Assembly (NCBI RefSeq): GCF_964204645.1
Contig: NC_134031.1
Location: 5,315,001 to 5,379,000 of the forward strand
Direction: 5' to 3'
Length of the DNA stretch: 64,000 nucleotides
From: Tubulanus polymorphus
Lineage: Eukaryota > Nemertea > Palaeonemertea > Tubulaniformes > Tubulanidae
Shown here one piece after another: positions 1,326-50,000 of this stretch. A program made the position numbers and the translations under genes. Position 1 is the first letter of the stretch. Every line of letters starts with the position of its first letter. Under the pieces are notes generated by a model. The model saw nothing but the letters and a program-made list of their open reading frames with translations. It was not told the origin of the DNA and did not search any database.

Positions 1326-2756
1326 TTAACCACTTGGTTGTTTTTCCATCTTATCGTCACTGTTTGCGTTTTTCAGGATTTGGGACTTGGCGTATCTCAG
1401 TGTGCGGTCAGCGTAGCCTCGCTGTCGCAGGGAGGTGAACAGTGTCTTGGTGGCCGCGTGGAAGTCAGCGTCGTTATTACAGATTCTCCTGTATCGGAGA
1501 AGCATTTTATACATTTGACCCGATATGTCGATACATCATTCCATAGAAGCTTTGCCAAGAACTTAATCATTTTAATCTTGATGAATCGCAAGCTGGGTTC
1601 TACCTAATTCACCATAGACCATATAATTTGGGGTAGACCGGTTTAGATGTAGTAAATATTTACAAAAACGCAGGTGGTATTTCTCTAAAATAGCAGTTGA
1701 TTCGTAACCCCATATTTCACATGCATGATTGGTTCGACCATAGCATCAAAAAGTTCTAAACCTATGTTTGTATCAAAAGAGTACTGTTGGACCTTTTTCT
1801 AAAACAAAAAATAGAGCTTTATTTGCACTTTCCCCAATTTTCTTTCGACATTTTGCAAATGTACCAGTGTAATTAAATAATATTCCTAAGTAGACAAATT
1901 CGTCAACAACTTCTACTTCTTGTTGGTGTATAAAAAAATTGGTTTTAATCTTGATTTTCTTTTTTGGAATATTAGTATTTTAGTCTTTGCTGGGTTGATT
2001 TTCAATTTCCAAATTCAAGGTCACAATATTCAGACAAAGAATCAAGTGCTAATTGTAGGCCTTCCATCGAGTCAGATATAAAATAAGGGTATCGTCTGCA
2101 TACAAAAGCAAGAAGTCTCAACCAGAAATTTACCTCATCATTATTATCAATACATACACTTTGACAGCCTTTACCCAATAGAAAGTTTTCAAGGTCGTTT
2201 ACATATAGACTAAAAAGAAGTGGGATAGATTATCTCCCTGCTTGAGACCAATATGACTATGGAAAAAACTCGGAATTCCTTCCGTTAGTCGAAACACAAC
2301 ATTTGACGGACTTATACATATTTACTACGATATTGTAAAATTTACCTGTGATTCCGTGGCTATCTAATTTTTTCCATAGTGTTTTTCTCCAGATTTTATC
2401 AAACGCTTTTTCATAGTCAATAAATGCACAGTATAATTTGCGATTTTTACCCAAAAACAAGTCAACAACTGATTTCAGTGTAAATATATGGTCAGTAACC
2501 CCATGTTTCTTACGGAAGCCGGCTTGTATAAGATTTAACAACTGGTTGCACTCTAGAAATTCAGATAATCGACTGTTGACCAGACCAGTAAATAGTTTGC
2601 CTAGACAGCTCGTTAGTGAAATGCCCCAGTAGTTATCTGGGCAATTAGGATCCCCTTTGTTTTTAAAAAGTGGAATTATTGTTGATAGTCCCCAGTCGTG
2701 TGGGTAAATTCCTGAGTCCAAGATTCCTGAGTTCAAGGGATTTTTGGTAGACTTAT
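1326..2756 (-). pseudogene. Decayed non-LTR retrotransposon reverse transcriptase (3' part of ORF2)
   Basis: Read on the minus strand, 2736-2257 encodes a reverse-transcriptase palm and finger segment: a block resembling NYxGISL..CLGKLFT, then QAGFRKKHGVTDHIF, then the catalytic motif A region CAFIDYEKAFDKI. It continues past a frameshift at about 2257 into GLKQGD and then the catalytic motif YADDT near 2095. C-terminal remnants such as VYGELGR lie around 1600. Stops and frameshifts are scattered throughout, so the element is dead. Motif order and wording are those of CR1/L2/RTE-like non-LTR elements. Endonuclease and 5' regions are absent. The last 190 bases (1514-1326) form an open stretch rich in Arg and Tyr that may be the element tail or another fragment. 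Confidence 0.8.
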
Positions 2757-3789
2757 GATCGTTAATGAAGCGATAGAAATATAAATCATTATTCCCTCAT
2801 TGAGGTAGCCCACTGTGTGTGGTCATTCAATAGGTCATTACAATATTTGAAGCCCACTGTGTGTGGTCTAGATGCGGTGTGCCTTCGTGTGTCCTGTTGC
2901 CTGCTGTGTGCGGGCTCGAGGGGTGTGTGCCCTAGGGTCCAATTTTTATGAACCAGAGGCCATGTGCCTATCAGGTTTCCTGTTGTGTATGTGCTCAAGA
3001 TGTTCAGTTGTCAGTTGATGTACCAAATTTCTCCGACCAAATTTCTCCTTGCTTCCCAATACACAAAAGCATTACATAGATAACAGCAGGACCACTGGTA
3101 GAACATGGGTTCGAGGGACCAAATGTCTGACTGGTAAACCATATAAGAACTACGAAAAACGTGTTTCAGTAAGTAATATAGTACGAGTGGACACTCAGAT
3201 TTATTCTGTACACAATGTATAGTTCATTAGTGACAGGTACTGATATTCGCTCATTATTTGTGCTATAGGAACATAATACATGTGTTGAATGCCATGGATT
3301 ACACTGATGATGATAATACTCTTGACATCAGTCGCGACAAGGACCATTTATATAAAGTGTATTATTATACAGAGCAACTCCGAAACACACATCCGAAAAT
3401 TATTGTCAGCATGTATTGGTCCCAGAAAAAAAGAATCCTAAGGCTCCTAAGGTATGAAATGAAATTTACATTTACAAATCATTCCTCATTCCCTCGACGT
3501 TAGAAACAAACAAAGTTATCCCCAATCAGTCGCTTGTCAGGCTGGTTGGAAGATTGTTTCAATGAACCGGAACGAAAATCTCAAATTGTTGCCTTCGATT
3601 TGAACAAAAAATTCTATAGATTCGACCGCCGATCACCGCGCAACTGTACTTCGATTTCCGATTTCAAAATCAAACCCCCTGTTTCGCCCCCGGTAGATAT
3701 CATATTTGTTTTTAACTTCGTATGCAAATATATCCGACTTTGGTGTAGTGTGTACGAATAAGACATTAACCACGTGTGTTAAGGTGTTT
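2757..3789. other. Intergenic, with a short direct repeat and SINE-like fragment
   Basis: No gene is supported here. The 17-base string GCCCACTGTGTGTGGTC occurs twice, near 2808 and 2852. The stretch from about 3515 to 3720 (starting CCCAATCAGTCGCTTGTCAG) matches sequence at 18670-18700 and, inverted, at about 37200-37260, so it is part of a dispersed repeat. Open frames in this stretch are short and have no recognisable protein signature. Confidence 0.5.
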
Positions 3790-14991: not shown

Positions 14992-29436
<14,445 letters not shown>

Positions 29437-35784: not shown

Positions 35785-36012
35785 TGTAATGAGAGAAATC
35801 CTGCAATACATTCCGCCAAAAAAAAATTAAAAGTAGAAAATGGTATATATTTCGAGCACTGTTTTTTCGGCTAATAACTATTAGCCATCATCAGGCGTAC
35901 TAAGAACAAAATGAAATTAAAGGAATATTTATACGAGAATCAGACAAAAAGTCCAAGTGAGTAATTTTTCTTTTTTGGCTGAATCTATTGTTGGATTTCT
36001 CTCATTAATCAC
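35785..36012 (-). mobile_element. Foldback element with intact hammerhead-like core, family I
   Basis: Outer arms TAATGAGAGAAATCC (left) and GGATTTCTCTCATTA (right) plus inner AGCCAAAA-type words are inverted. On the minus strand the core is CTGATGA (35894-35888), a seven-base-pair stem II GGCTAAT/ATTAGCC (35886-35869) and GAAA (35868-35865). All invariant hammerhead core bases are present; stem III and the cleavage site are not clear. Lies upstream of the Sfi1-like gene. Penelope-like retroelements are known to carry type I hammerheads of this design; assignment to them is inference. Confidence 0.7.
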
Positions 36013-36242
36013 CTTACACGGATATATTGTGTATCTTCTCGACTCTCGTGTTTTAGGGCCTTTTAGAAACGATGTTTTCACCGCGTAGGATTCGCATCTT
36101 CGCTCGAAATCGTTCCCTCTTTTTCATTCCGTATCTGCAGTTACTATGGAAACTGGTTACAGATTTTCGCGTTATTTCCTGAGATTCGTGATTCATCTCA
36201 ATTAGTGGATTTTATAGTTGGGTGGGGCTGATATGTGAGGTA

Positions 36243-36277: not shown

Positions 36278-37532
36278 TGTATACTTCGATCTCTGGGTAG
36301 CTTCCTAATTAGCTCCTATTTTCCGCTCGCTACATGATCACCTGCTTTTCATGTAATTAGAAGTCGAATCTCCACAACTTCTATTGTAAATTCGGTTCAT
36401 TCGAAACTCCTCTTGGATCGTGCTTAACATTTATTGCAATTGCGATGAAATTTCTAATCTATCCATGCGTAATTACATATGTTGAAAATCTGCATGAAAA
36501 GTCTAGATTGAAAATATTGGTATTCATATAGATTTAAATGGACTATAATTTTGAATGTCTTACCAAAAGCTGTTCTTCAGTAGAAGCACGTATATTTAGA
36601 AGACAATAATTTTGAATGTTATGTCAATAAACTGTTCTGCGATAAATATTTTTTCTTCAGATCAGTTTAATATACTGGTTTTGACTTTTGGGCCTCATCA
36701 ATTCAGTTAATTCCTGAATCTATAAAACTGTAGTTGAATTATTTTTCATTATCTTGCTGTAAGGAACCTATTAATTTTTTGTGACCAATCGGAAAAGACA
36801 AAAGGGTGCTTTGTATGTAATGTACAGTAGTCGGTATGATTCTCGGAGAGGGCTGTAATATGAAACAATCAATAGATTCTGAGATCAGATCCATTCATTC
36901 TCCCTCTCCCCGATGGTGTAATCTCTGTGTTGCAGGCGGTGAACTCGGTGGATTATAACGGTTTATCAATATTCATATCTCGTCATAAAAGCGTGCACAT
37001 CTACGAGAAAAAATATTCCGTTCTATTTGGCGTTGTGAGGATTCCACAGTCATTAGATTCTCCGGTCTAATTTTGACTTCAGATTTGGTTCTAGTTTCAA
37101 GCTTTCAAACGATATCTAGGCCTATAGGGGATGATGGTTGTGCTGGAATAGTAGAATCTTTTTGAATCGAAGTAGATAATTGGAAATTTCAGTTCTGATT
37201 TGTATAAACAATATTCCAACCAGCCTGAAGCGGCGAGTGACTGATTGAGGTTAATTCTGTTATTTGATTTCCGATTTTTAAGTCAAATCCCTCGTTTTGC
37301 TCCCAGCAGTTTGTATTAAAGGACACCAAATCAAAATGAATCAGATCAAATCTACCATTGAAACAAACAACAGGGTCAATCCCTATTCTAAGATCAGAAT
37401 ACTAGATTTTCCAAAAGATGACTACTACAACACTTCTTAAATCCTGGATCCTGGGGTAATTTTCGTTCTCAAACGAATTAAAGTCAAGCGCTTAACAGGG
37501 ACCATATATGCTCGAGTATTGTGTTACTAAAC

Positions 37533-37668
37533 GCGAGAAATCCAATAATAAATGTAGCCAAAACGAGAAACTCAGTACGCCTGATGATGGCTAATAGTCT
37601 TCAGCCGAAACGTTGTGCTCTTCTATTCAAGTTTCTCGTTTTGGCTACATTTATTGCAGGATTTCTCG
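37533..37668 (+). mobile_element. Foldback element with intact hammerhead-like core, family I
   Basis: Arms CGAGAAATCC, AAATGTAGCCAAAACGAGAA and their inverses (TTCTCGTTTTGGCTACATTT, GGATTTCTCG) bracket a plus-strand core: CTGATGA (37581-37587), stem II GGCT/AGCC (37589-37592 and 37603-37606), GAAA (37607-37610). The invariant core is complete; the stem III and cleavage triplet are uncertain. It is 345 bases upstream of the first confidently placed Sfi1-like exon, on the same strand. Confidence 0.7.
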
Positions 37669-38013
37669 TGATTATTCATCATACATGGATAATGTGTTTT
37701 TTTCTCGACACATTGTGTTACTACCCGGTGTACGTAGGAATAGGAATCCAGAATATAGGCCTAGTGAAACACTTGATAACAATTTAAATCAGGAAAACCA
37801 TTTATTATCGATACTCGAGTACGAATACGTATTGGAAATTTCAGCTTTACGTCGTTATTTTCGCATTCAGTGTAAAATTACCGTTTTCATATTATATTTC
37901 TGTACTCAATTATCGATTGTGGCAATTATTTTCTAAATGACACTCCATTGACCGGGTTAAATATTGACATTTTTTTTGGTGAAGTTGATGAATTTGCTTT
38001 GTGTTATTTACAG

Positions 38014-47000: not shown

Positions 47001-50000
47001 AAAAAAATGAATACCAGGTATAAAACTACCGGTAATATTCATATTAGAATTTGCTTCTGTATCTGTTCATCCTTTCTTGTAGTTTCATTTACGAAATGGA
47101 AGACAGCGACAGTTGAAAATCGTTGGAATCTACGACGCGCCGATGACTTGAACAAACGCCAATCTCAACGTAGATTACGGAGAATGCTAGACGCGTGGTT
47201 CATCTATACGAAACAATCGCGAACTATCCAGTCGCTTCATACCCGAGTCAGGTGTACAATTCTGACGAAAGCTTTCGACGGATGGCGTTCGCGCGCCGCC
47301 TTAAAGAAAGATCATGATCAGAAACTAAATCGCCGTCAACTCGAAACCCAACGTAAGACGTTCAATTCATGGAGGTAGGTGAAATCTTTATCTTTTCGGC
47401 TTGACCGGTAGACTGATATTGATCTCAGTATTTAGGAGTTAATTAACAAAACCCAAAGTTGATGATTTTACAATTTATTCTGACAGTGTTGAAGTTTTGA
47501 CTAAACCTCATCATCAGATTTTCTGTTTCTCTGATGTTCAAGTGTAGTCAAAACTTCGAAGAAACTGTCAGAATAAATTGTTGAATCATCAACTGTGGGT
47601 TCTGTTCATTGACTTGGCCAGAGCTGCCCACTCATCCTACTTATCAATCTTTGTTAATATTTTGTCGCGAGAAATACTGATTTGATTTGTTTGATGCGTA
47701 CAGAAATATGAAAGTTGTTACTGAGGGTCTTACTGTTGATTACTGATTATTGGGTGATTTGAAAATTTTCCTTCATATATCAATGAAATGTTACTGAAAA
47801 CAAATTTGTTACTGCTAGCACTTTACAGAGGTTGGCAGCCCTGCTGGCTACTGGTAGCTGCAGGGTCCACTTTCCATGAATCAGAATGGCTGAAAGGTTT
47901 CCGATCACGGGTTACATTTTTACGGTATGTTTATTTTTCTTTATCTTTTGCAGGTTAGAGCTACAAAAGCAGAAGATCGCCGGAGACTTTGAGCAGCTCG
48001 TTTTTAACCGTCGTGCCGTAGATATATTCAGAAGTTGGAAATACGTCGTGCAAAGACGAAAAATCGCTCAACAATTCAACATCAGACGCTTACTCAGGTT
48101 ATGCGTGAACGTCTGGAAAATGGAATACGAGATGAGAATTGATAGGAAGGAAATGAGAATCGGAAATCAGGTGATTCTGATTCTTTGAATAACTAAGATA
48201 TTAGACTTGTTACGGTGATACGTGTATATGGTTGTAAGACAGTCTTGAATCAAAACCTTGACTGAACTACTCACCTAGGTCTGGACTGGAGCCAGGACCC
48301 GGTTTCACAGTAGTTAGTTAACCCTTTCAGCGTGTCTACACCGCAGTGTGACTTATAAATCTGTGATGGACATGCCACAGTGCGGTGTATTGATGTTATT
48401 AGCAATTCGTTGTTGTCTATGGAATTATGGCAACACACATCAAACATGCAGAAATATTACGATTGATTAAACACTATATCCGTGTGAAGCTAAGTAGAGA
48501 GAATCCCACAATTATAACGGAAAAACAAAGTCCAAAAATGTAACTGAAGCTAGTAGTTTATTCAACGTTTCAATTATATCCTAATAGTCATCTTCAGGAA
48601 TAATGAATTACAACAAAAATTATGAGATATATAGACAATCCAGAAACAAAGAGACTAATTCAAGTAATCAGAGATGATACAAATTAAAGGAAAATTAACG
48701 TAGAAACAGTACACCTCACCGCAGTATAGACGCACTATAGCCATGTGCCAGTTATACAACGTACTGGGGTCAAATTTTTTTTTTGGGGGGGATTGTTTTC
48801 AAATCATCTCCAGCATTTCAGGGTATTAGTTAGTCGGAACTGAAAATTTAACCTGTATTCCAATATTTCACTTGCAAAAGATTTAGCTGGGTTCTTGTCA
48901 TTTTACAATGTTTGTATCTGTATTTCAGTTGCGCAAACACGTTACGAAGAAAGCTTGTATGAAAATTTGGAAACTAACGACAGATCGACAAGTGCTCGTT
49001 CAGGAGATTATCACTACTCGACTGGATGAAAAACGAAAAGTGCGTTACTTGAAAGTTTACATGCAAAATTGGAAATGCGCATTGCGTAACCAACACACAG
49101 CCAGGTAACCAAACAGTTCCCTAAATACTAATTTATATATCATGCCTCGTCCTTGAATTCTAATTAACTCTGAGATGAATCAATCCCTAAATTGATTTCA
49201 CTATGACTCAGTTCCTCCACAAAGTATTGTCTCATGCTATCAAAGATTTCCTATTGTCATATCCTTCGTCATGAAGATGTGTACTATTCCAAAAAAAAAT
49301 CAGAATTTTGATTATATTTCAAACAAAATTGTCTCTCATGCATTTTTTTACTGCTTGCTCGATGCCGGCTTAAGCCCAAAATAAATAGGTGCATGACGTT
49401 TCCAAAACGTTTTCGAAATGTCATGCGCCGCAAAGGGTTAAGGTACCAGTTTCTTACAAGCTCGGCATTTTTCTGGTCCCTCATCCATTTTCAGTTATAT
49501 GTCCTGTAAAATGGATCAACTTGTAACTTATTTACAAATAAATCATGTGTGATGTGTTAATCATGCCCAATTTCCTATATGTATCTGAAATTGAAAAGGA
49601 AAAATGATAACAATACTGTTTTTTCAATTCAAGTAAATTTCAAGAGAAGAAAACCGTGAACCATTTGAGACACGTGCTGCGACATTGGCATGAGTTATCT
49701 CGTCGGGAAATGAACGACTCGGTTTGCCATCTGAAATCGCGAATCAACGCCGAAGAGCGGAAAATCATCGGCGAAAATCAAAACTCGTCGTGTCGCCGAG
49801 ATTCGGCGATTACGGTTAGAAAAATTTCGGCCGGTTCCTTGAATTCGGATTCGTCGGGTTTTAATACGATCAACGCGCAATCGTTATCCGTGAGTTCTTG
49901 TAGCAGCGATGAATCAGAAGATATATTCTTAACTCCGGAGTCGAGTCCACCCCGAAACGACGATCAACGATTACCTCAACAAACGATGGTTCAATCGAGA

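What the first reader, a model, noticed from the sequence alone, without database searches (positions are those of the whole stretch)
35785..36012. Small inverted-repeat element carrying an intact hammerhead-like core (family I)
The minus strand contains CTGATGA, a seven-base-pair stem II (GGCTAAT/ATTAGCC) and GAAA in correct order and spacing, framed by inverted arms that would extend stem I. This is how type I hammerheads look in Penelope-like retroelements, but no reverse transcriptase is nearby. It may be a non-autonomous, self-cleaving mobile RNA element.
Basis: partly seen in the sequence, partly recalled or inferred. Interest (0 to 1): 0.85.

Follow-up and report, generated by a model that had tools for sequence, protein, structure and literature searches.

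The report
Broken Penelope retroelement end with ribozyme
The small inverted repeat is an old, damaged leftover of a common jumping gene (a Penelope-like retroelement) whose RNA carries a hammerhead-ribozyme-like motif; the motif is real and present in thousands of copies in this animal genome, but in this copy the cutting site is destroyed, so the copy itself is ordinary.

Summary
The arms and the CTGATGA / 7-bp stem / GAAA block exist, but the core is not intact: an extra U sits between A9 and stem II (true of the whole family), and the family's CGTTGC after GAAA reads AAACAGTGC here, so the cleavage site is gone. The element (35787 to ~36045) is a decayed head-to-head pair of pseudo-LTRs (pLTRs) of a Penelope-like element (PLE). 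Long copies of the same repeat encode a reverse transcriptase and GIY-YIG endonuclease; one locus (L039) is a near-identical tandem with an open 817-aa frame. The motif occurs about 2,680 times exactly in the genome (reversed control: 2), in several pLTR families, with covarying stems I and II. At least four more copies lie in the window; one 1.5 kb away keeps the cleavage site and a 12-bp target duplication. It is therefore a PLE insertion product, not a separate self-cleaving element. Two regularities go beyond the copy: in 23 of 23 resolved pairs exactly one arm carries the PLE 'tail', and 5' ends pile up at a TATA/initiator start at the ribozyme's 5' edge, not at its cleavage site. This suggests uncleaved RNA is the usual template.

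The parts
35787..36045 (.). Whole element: decayed head-to-head pair of PLE pseudo-LTRs (pLTRs)
   Evidence: Alignment to other genomic copies and to the PLE locus L039
35787..35965 (-). Left arm: pLTR in minus orientation without tail, 3' end at 35787 (+106 counted from C3 of the hammerhead motif), running past the inferred transcription start
   Evidence: blastn to L005, L003 and L016 pLTRs, 75-79% identity
35852..35901 (-). Hammerhead-like motif, degraded: CTGATGA-T-stem II-GAAA kept, CGTTGC replaced by AAACAGTGC
   Evidence: R1 covariance model 42.0 bits, E 6.8e-11; alignment to relatives
35901..35901 (-). Inferred PLE transcription start (initiator-like TCAGT in relatives, TTAGT here)
   Evidence: 5'-end pile-up of copies and Inr/TATA spacing in relatives
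35926..35933 (-). TATA box TATAAATA of the pLTR promoter (about 32 nt before the inferred start)
   Evidence: Sequence; same box at -31 in families C, D and W
35963..36045 (+). Right arm: 3' part of a pLTR in plus orientation, 5'-truncated at about +62, so without the hammerhead
   Evidence: blastn to L005 85%, L039 85%
36008..36045 (+). PLE 'tail' (extension at the 3' end of one of the two arms)
   Evidence: Alignment with L039 and L010 tails; 23/23 pairs have exactly one tail
37530..37713 (.). Second head-to-head pLTR pair with preserved hammerhead motif at 37574-37620 (+)
   Evidence: R1 58.4 bits, E 4.1e-16; blastn to L039
37518..37529 (+). Left 12-bp target site duplication ATTGTGTTACTA of the second pair
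37712..37723 (+). Right 12-bp target site duplication ATTGTGTTACTA of the second pair
48443..48711 (-). pLTR of a second PLE family (B) with hammerhead motif at 48558-48604
   Evidence: 84% identity to L034; R1 56.5 bits
24665..24874 (.). Inverted copies of a third pLTR family (E) with partial motif at 24753-24785 (-)
   Evidence: 93-95% identity to L063; R1 27.8 bits
20312..20415 (-). Degraded pLTR fragment with motif at 20369-20415
   Evidence: R1 40.9 bits; blastn to L039, L005 and L026

Best explanation
The element is an old insertion product of a Penelope-like retroelement: two partial pLTR copies joined head to head. Shown: the same repeat ends long copies that encode RT and GIY-YIG; the pLTR holds a minimal hammerhead-like motif with covarying stems; sibling inverted pairs have 11-15 bp target duplications, variable internal breakpoints and exactly one tailed arm. 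Inferred: the PLE promoter (TATA about -31, initiator) starts transcription 6-7 nt before the hammerhead core, so the motif forms the 5' end of the RNA. The PLE protein cuts both target strands, each cut end primes cDNA at one of two internal start sites (tail or no tail), the cDNAs run toward the RNA 5' end, and the two are joined head to head. In this copy the cleavage site is destroyed, so it is not expected to self-cleave.
For: 62 places match the window element genome-wide with only 40 of 547 candidates scored. Long copies carry PLE RT and GIY-YIG frames just upstream of the motif. L039: 817-aa frame with RVT_1 E 4e-12 and GIY-YIG E 5.5e-6, tandem units 99.7% identical, a 100% identical inverted pLTR, frame starting inside the pLTR. 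Exact motif pattern 1344 + 1336 hits against 2 + 0 control. Covariation score 0.440 against 0.165 +/- 0.016 shuffled; 9 of 11 pairs change on both sides. Head-to-head 31 against tail-to-tail 2; one tail per pair in 23/23 resolved pairs. TSDs of 11-15 bp on many sibling pairs, including window 37518-37723. Matches published PLE anatomy: head-to-head inverted pLTR, 31-bp tail on one of them, TSD (PMC3846280); two internal RT start sites bounding the tail, both strands cut and extended, hammerhead in the pLTR (PMC11167929).
Against: No target duplication was found for this copy; at 20-25% divergence it may have decayed, but insertion is shown only for siblings. No phylogeny placed the RT within the PLE clades. 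Transcription start and dual priming are inferred from DNA alone. The left arm runs beyond the inferred start, so its RNA began upstream or by read-through.
Confidence: 0.92

Rival explanations
1. A discrete non-autonomous, self-cleaving mobile RNA element (metazoan retrozyme type) that amplifies by itself through circular RNA.
For: Short size, hammerhead-like motif, no RT in the window. L010 and C1:24263759-24264038 share the same internal junction at 88% identity, and L010 aligns to the finding across the junction, so at least some short copies may have been recopied or share a preferred breakpoint.
Against: Internal breakpoints vary between copies; the repeat is part of autonomous PLEs. Metazoan retrozymes are direct tandem repeats with canonical hammerheads with tertiary contacts (PMC7229834); here the motif is minimal and the layout inverted. 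Rfam Hammerhead_1 finds nothing above threshold genome-wide. This copy lacks a cleavage site.
Confidence: 0.04
2. A MITE-like terminal-inverted-repeat DNA transposon that happens to contain a hammerhead-like sequence.
For: Inverted ends of about 40 bp.
Against: In resolved pairs the two ends are never the same length: one has a 36-bp tail and the other does not. TSDs are 11-15 bp and variable; breakpoints are internal and variable; long copies encode RT + GIY-YIG and no transposase was seen.
Confidence: 0.01
3. A chance hammerhead look-alike in AT-rich DNA.
For: Rfam reports nothing at threshold.
Against: About 2,680 exact motifs against 2 in the reversed-pattern control, strong covariation, and none in Markov sequences.
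Confidence: 0.01
4. The decayed remnant of a once full-length PLE that lost its body by deletion, rather than a short insertion from the start.
For: No TSD at this copy; it is old; its left arm reaches beyond the usual start site.
Against: Many sibling pairs lacking the ORF keep perfect TSDs and so were inserted short. L010, which is flanked by a degenerate possible TSD, aligns across the same junction.
Confidence: 0.15

Closest known systems
Penelope/Poseidon-type PLE pLTRs (Adineta vaga Pen families, PMC3846280; Anolis PAc, PMC11167929)
   Same: RT + GIY-YIG frame, partial tandem units, head-to-head inverted pLTR, 30-40 bp tail on one arm, target duplication, TATA and initiator-like sequence in the pLTR, hammerhead in the pLTR near the ORF start
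   Different: TSDs here are mostly 11-15 bp against 8-10 bp quoted for A. vaga; pLTR-only inverted pairs are very numerous; the ORF does not start at stem II as in PAc (an in-frame stop lies inside stem II here)
Minimal type I hammerhead motifs of PLEs (Cervera and de la Pena 2014, known here only through later papers)
   Same: Minimal motif without a proper helix III and without the usual loop-loop contacts, as described in PMC6155905; CUGANGA, stem II and GAAA conserved
   Different: Near-constant extra U after A9. Whether other PLE motifs share it could not be checked because the 2014 paper is not held
Metazoan non-LTR retrozymes (PMC7229834)
   Same: Small, AT-rich, type I-like hammerhead, no coding capacity in the short form
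   Different: Inverted instead of direct tandem, minimal instead of canonical hammerhead, physically part of an autonomous PLE
Rfam RF00163 Hammerhead_1
   Same: Order of core blocks and stems I and II
   Different: No score at threshold; no stem III loop; extra core nucleotide

Membership tests
Penelope-like elements (EN-containing) | RT and GIY-YIG endonuclease in one frame in the family's long copies | tested here: met
   L039 817-aa frame: RVT_1 4e-12, GIY-YIG 5.5e-6; decayed frames upstream of the motif in L015, L019, L022 and L026. Not present in the window copy.
Penelope-like elements (EN-containing) | pLTRs from partial tandem arrangement | tested here: met
   L039 tandem unit of 2857 bp, 99.7% identical
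Penelope-like elements (EN-containing) | Head-to-head inverted pLTR with tail on one arm | tested here: met
   31 head-to-head against 2 tail-to-tail; 23/23 one tail; the finding's copy has it
Penelope-like elements (EN-containing) | Target site duplication | tested here: inconclusive
   Met for many siblings and for window 37518-37723; none detectable at the finding's copy
Penelope-like elements (EN-containing) | RT placed in the PLE clade by phylogeny | not tested
   Only Pfam matches and anatomy were used
Type I hammerhead ribozyme | Conserved core CUGANGA ... GAAA directly flanking stem II | tested here: not met
   Extra base (nearly always U) after A9 in all families; other core letters conserved
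Type I hammerhead ribozyme | Cleavage triplet (U16.1-H17) after stem III | tested here: not met
   Lost in the finding's copy; present in relatives as CGTT|G or CGTC|G
Type I hammerhead ribozyme | Stem III | tested here: not met
   Only ACGU between GAAA's last A and the cleavage site; no loop possible in a monomer. Minimal PLE motifs are described as lacking helix III (PMC6155905)
Type I hammerhead ribozyme | Stems I and II maintained by compensatory change | tested here: met
Type I hammerhead ribozyme | Rfam gathering score | tested here: not met
Type I hammerhead ribozyme | Self-cleavage of the RNA | not testable with these tools
   needs a cleavage assay
Metazoan retrozyme | Direct tandem repeats of 170-400 bp with canonical hammerhead | tested here: not met
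   Inverted pairs, minimal motif

The most novel reading that the evidence does not exclude
In PLEs the hammerhead motif forms the extreme 5' end of the transcript, and the RNA that becomes new DNA is the uncleaved one. Each target cut primes two convergent cDNAs that obligatorily use different internal start sites (one tailed, one tail-less), so the two halves of the integration machinery act as a coupled, asymmetric pair. The ribozyme would then serve something other than making the template, for example removing the capped 5' end of mRNA or resolving read-through arrays.
Probability: 0.35. Interest if true: 0.55.

Novelty: new member of a known kind. Interest (0 to 1): 0.33.

Why it matters
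The copy itself is ordinary. The genome it sits in holds thousands of PLE ends with motif, promoter, tail and target duplication in many families, which makes an open question testable from sequence: whether PLE hammerheads cut the RNA before it is copied back into DNA. The pile-up of 5' ends at the promoter start instead of the cleavage site argues that they usually do not. This agrees with the in vitro finding for Anolis PAc that catalytic mutants insert normally (PMC11167929).

Tried and rejected
Rfam at gathering threshold and at loose E-values gave no hammerhead for the window copy, for well-preserved relatives, or genome-wide with RF00163; the family departs from the model, so this does not refute it. 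A footprint of ribozyme cleavage (5' ends at +35/36) was looked for and not seen: one arm near +33 (L008), none among 26 arms of loci between +30 and +49. A regex with many errors timed out. The primary paper on PLE hammerheads (msu232) is not held. Rfam mir-4662 and mir-305 matches in L070 were rejected: they are the palindrome made by two head-to-head pLTRs.

Full report
What is in the sequence. The minus strand at 35852-35901 reads AGTACGC-CTGATGA-T-GGCTAAT-AGTT-ATTAGCC-GAAA-AAACAGTGCTCGA. The inverted arms are 35787-35826 and 35968-36007, 40 nt, 88% complementary. There is one extra base, T, between A9 and stem II. And the bases after GAAA do not give a cleavage site. Rfam reports no hammerhead in the window or in this stretch at loose thresholds.

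It is a repeat family. A genome search found 62 matching places while scoring only 40 of 547 candidates. Their consensus reads CGCCTGATGATGGCTAAYAGTNNTTAGCCGAAACGTYGC. Against it, the finding's copy has AAACAGTGC in place of CGTTGC. The exact pattern CCTGAWGA-N13..28-CGAAACGT occurs 1344 + 1336 times, against 2 + 0 for the reversed pattern, in at least five stem II families. An alignment of 33 distinct members, without the finding's copy, supports stems I and II: 9 of 11 pairs change on both sides, covariation score 0.440 against 0.165 +/- 0.016 in shuffles and at most 0.184 when slid. A model built from it finds the finding's copy at 42 bits and four further instances in the window at 58.4, 56.5, 40.9 and 27.8 bits. 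The best of these, at 37574-37620, has the cleavage site that the finding has lost.

What carries it. Several relatives have, just upstream, decayed frames with RT motifs followed by a GIY-YIG domain. L039 (G000:C1:15221001-15229000) is a young complete case: tandem units of 2857 bp, 99.7% identical, each pLTR with the motif; an inverted pLTR identical over 151 bp; and an 817-aa frame that starts inside the pLTR and matches RVT_1 (4e-12) and GIY-YIG (5.5e-6). This is the anatomy of Penelope-like elements as described for Adineta vaga (head-to-head inverted pLTR, 31-bp tail on one of them, TSD, TATA and initiator; PMC3846280) and Anolis PAc (hammerhead in the pLTR, two internal RT start sites bounding the tail, both target strands cut and extended; PMC11167929).

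What the finding is. Mapped on pLTR coordinates with C3 of the hammerhead as +1, its left arm runs in minus orientation from +106 to about -51 or slightly beyond, and its right arm in plus orientation from +62 to about +140, tail included. So it is a head-to-head pair of partial pLTRs, 35787 to about 36045. No TSD is detectable here and it differs from relatives by 20-25%, so it is old. Sibling pairs show how such things arise: most younger pairs have 11-15 bp perfect duplications directly at their ends, among them the pair at 37530-37713 in this same window, with ATTGTGTTACTA at 37518-37529 and 37712-37723. Breakpoints between the arms differ from copy to copy, so these are separate integration events and not one amplifying short element. 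One pair of loci (L010 and C1:24263759) does share its junction at 88% identity, and the finding aligns across the same junction. A minor amount of recopying or a preferred breakpoint is therefore not excluded.

Two regularities. First, of 31 head-to-head pairs, 23 have both outer ends resolved, and all 23 have exactly one arm ending at +97..+112 and one at +130..+148. The loci, chosen by the hammerhead and not by the tail, behave the same way. The literature says the tail is present on one of the arms; the strictness here is a measurement. Second, 5' ends of arms with at least 88% identity pile up at -13..-3: 20 of the 27 that break within -100..0, p about 2e-14 against uniform. These loci were partly chosen for containing the motif, so the test concerns only positions upstream of it. 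An independent exact count in family C agrees: 74 copies from position -6 onward, of which 54 keep 7 more bases downstream but only 15 keep 7 more bases upstream (Fisher p 1.4e-10). The position coincides with an initiator-like TCAGT or TCATT, 31-33 nt downstream of TATAAATA or TATATATA in families B, C, D and W. No pile-up exists at the expected cleavage site +35/36.

Mechanism, shown and inferred. Shown: family identity, structure, covariation, TSDs, tail asymmetry, 5' pile-up. Inferred: transcription starts 6-7 nt before the hammerhead, so the motif is the 5' end of the RNA; reverse transcription starts at either of two internal sites and runs to the RNA 5' end; both cut target strands are extended and the two cDNAs are joined head to head. 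On this reading a pLTR-only insertion is the expected product when synthesis starts in the first pLTR of a transcript. The templates appear to be uncleaved RNAs, in line with the PAc result that catalytic mutants of the hammerhead do not change insertion (PMC11167929).

Alternatives. A retrozyme is unlikely: the layout is inverted instead of direct tandem, the motif is minimal, and it is part of an autonomous element. A MITE is excluded by the unequal ends and the coding copies. Chance is excluded by the counts. Origin by loss of the body of a full-length copy remains possible for this one old copy.

Limits. Host unnamed; no RNA data; no RT tree; the primary paper on PLE hammerheads could not be read, so whether the extra U is general among PLE motifs is not settled here. 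Breakpoints are BLAST ends, good to a few bases.

Verdict. Observation partly confirmed, interpretation partly supported; a damaged copy of a known kind of element, of modest interest, in a genome that could answer a mechanistic question about PLE ribozymes.

Noticed in passing
window 37518-37723: A second head-to-head pLTR pair, 1.5 kb from the finding, with preserved cleavage site and a perfect 12-bp target duplication; a better object for a cleavage assay than the finding.
   Followed up: yes
window 48443-48711, 24665-24874, 20312-20415: Three more PLE pLTR remnants with hammerhead-like motifs, from other pLTR families.
   Followed up: partly
L039 (G000:C1:15221001-15229000): Recent PLE array: 99.7% identical tandem units, open 817-aa RT-GIY-YIG frame, identical inverted pLTR.
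   Followed up: partly
head-to-head pairs listed: 23 of 23 resolved pairs have exactly one tailed and one tail-less arm.
   Followed up: partly
pairs: When one arm starts at the initiator the other is often short, with its 5' break at about +53..+92; this second cluster is unexplained.
   Followed up: no
L040 (G000:C4:50001-58500): A different GIY-YIG-containing element (820-aa frame) with a second frame upstream and a 2,987-bp direct repeat; it has no copy of the pLTR motif.
   Followed up: no
window 2257-2796 (-): Fragment of a LINE-like reverse transcriptase (RVT_1 E 1.9e-11), 33 kb from the finding and not a PLE relative by tblastn.
   Followed up: partly
L024:2441-2518 (-): mir-87 microRNA precursor above the Rfam gathering score; suggests a protostome host (from general knowledge of the family).
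   Followed up: no
L070:1507-1587: Rfam mir-4662 and mir-305 matches (E about 1e-7 and 6e-5, below gathering) are produced by the palindrome of two head-to-head pLTRs and are not microRNAs.
   Followed up: yes
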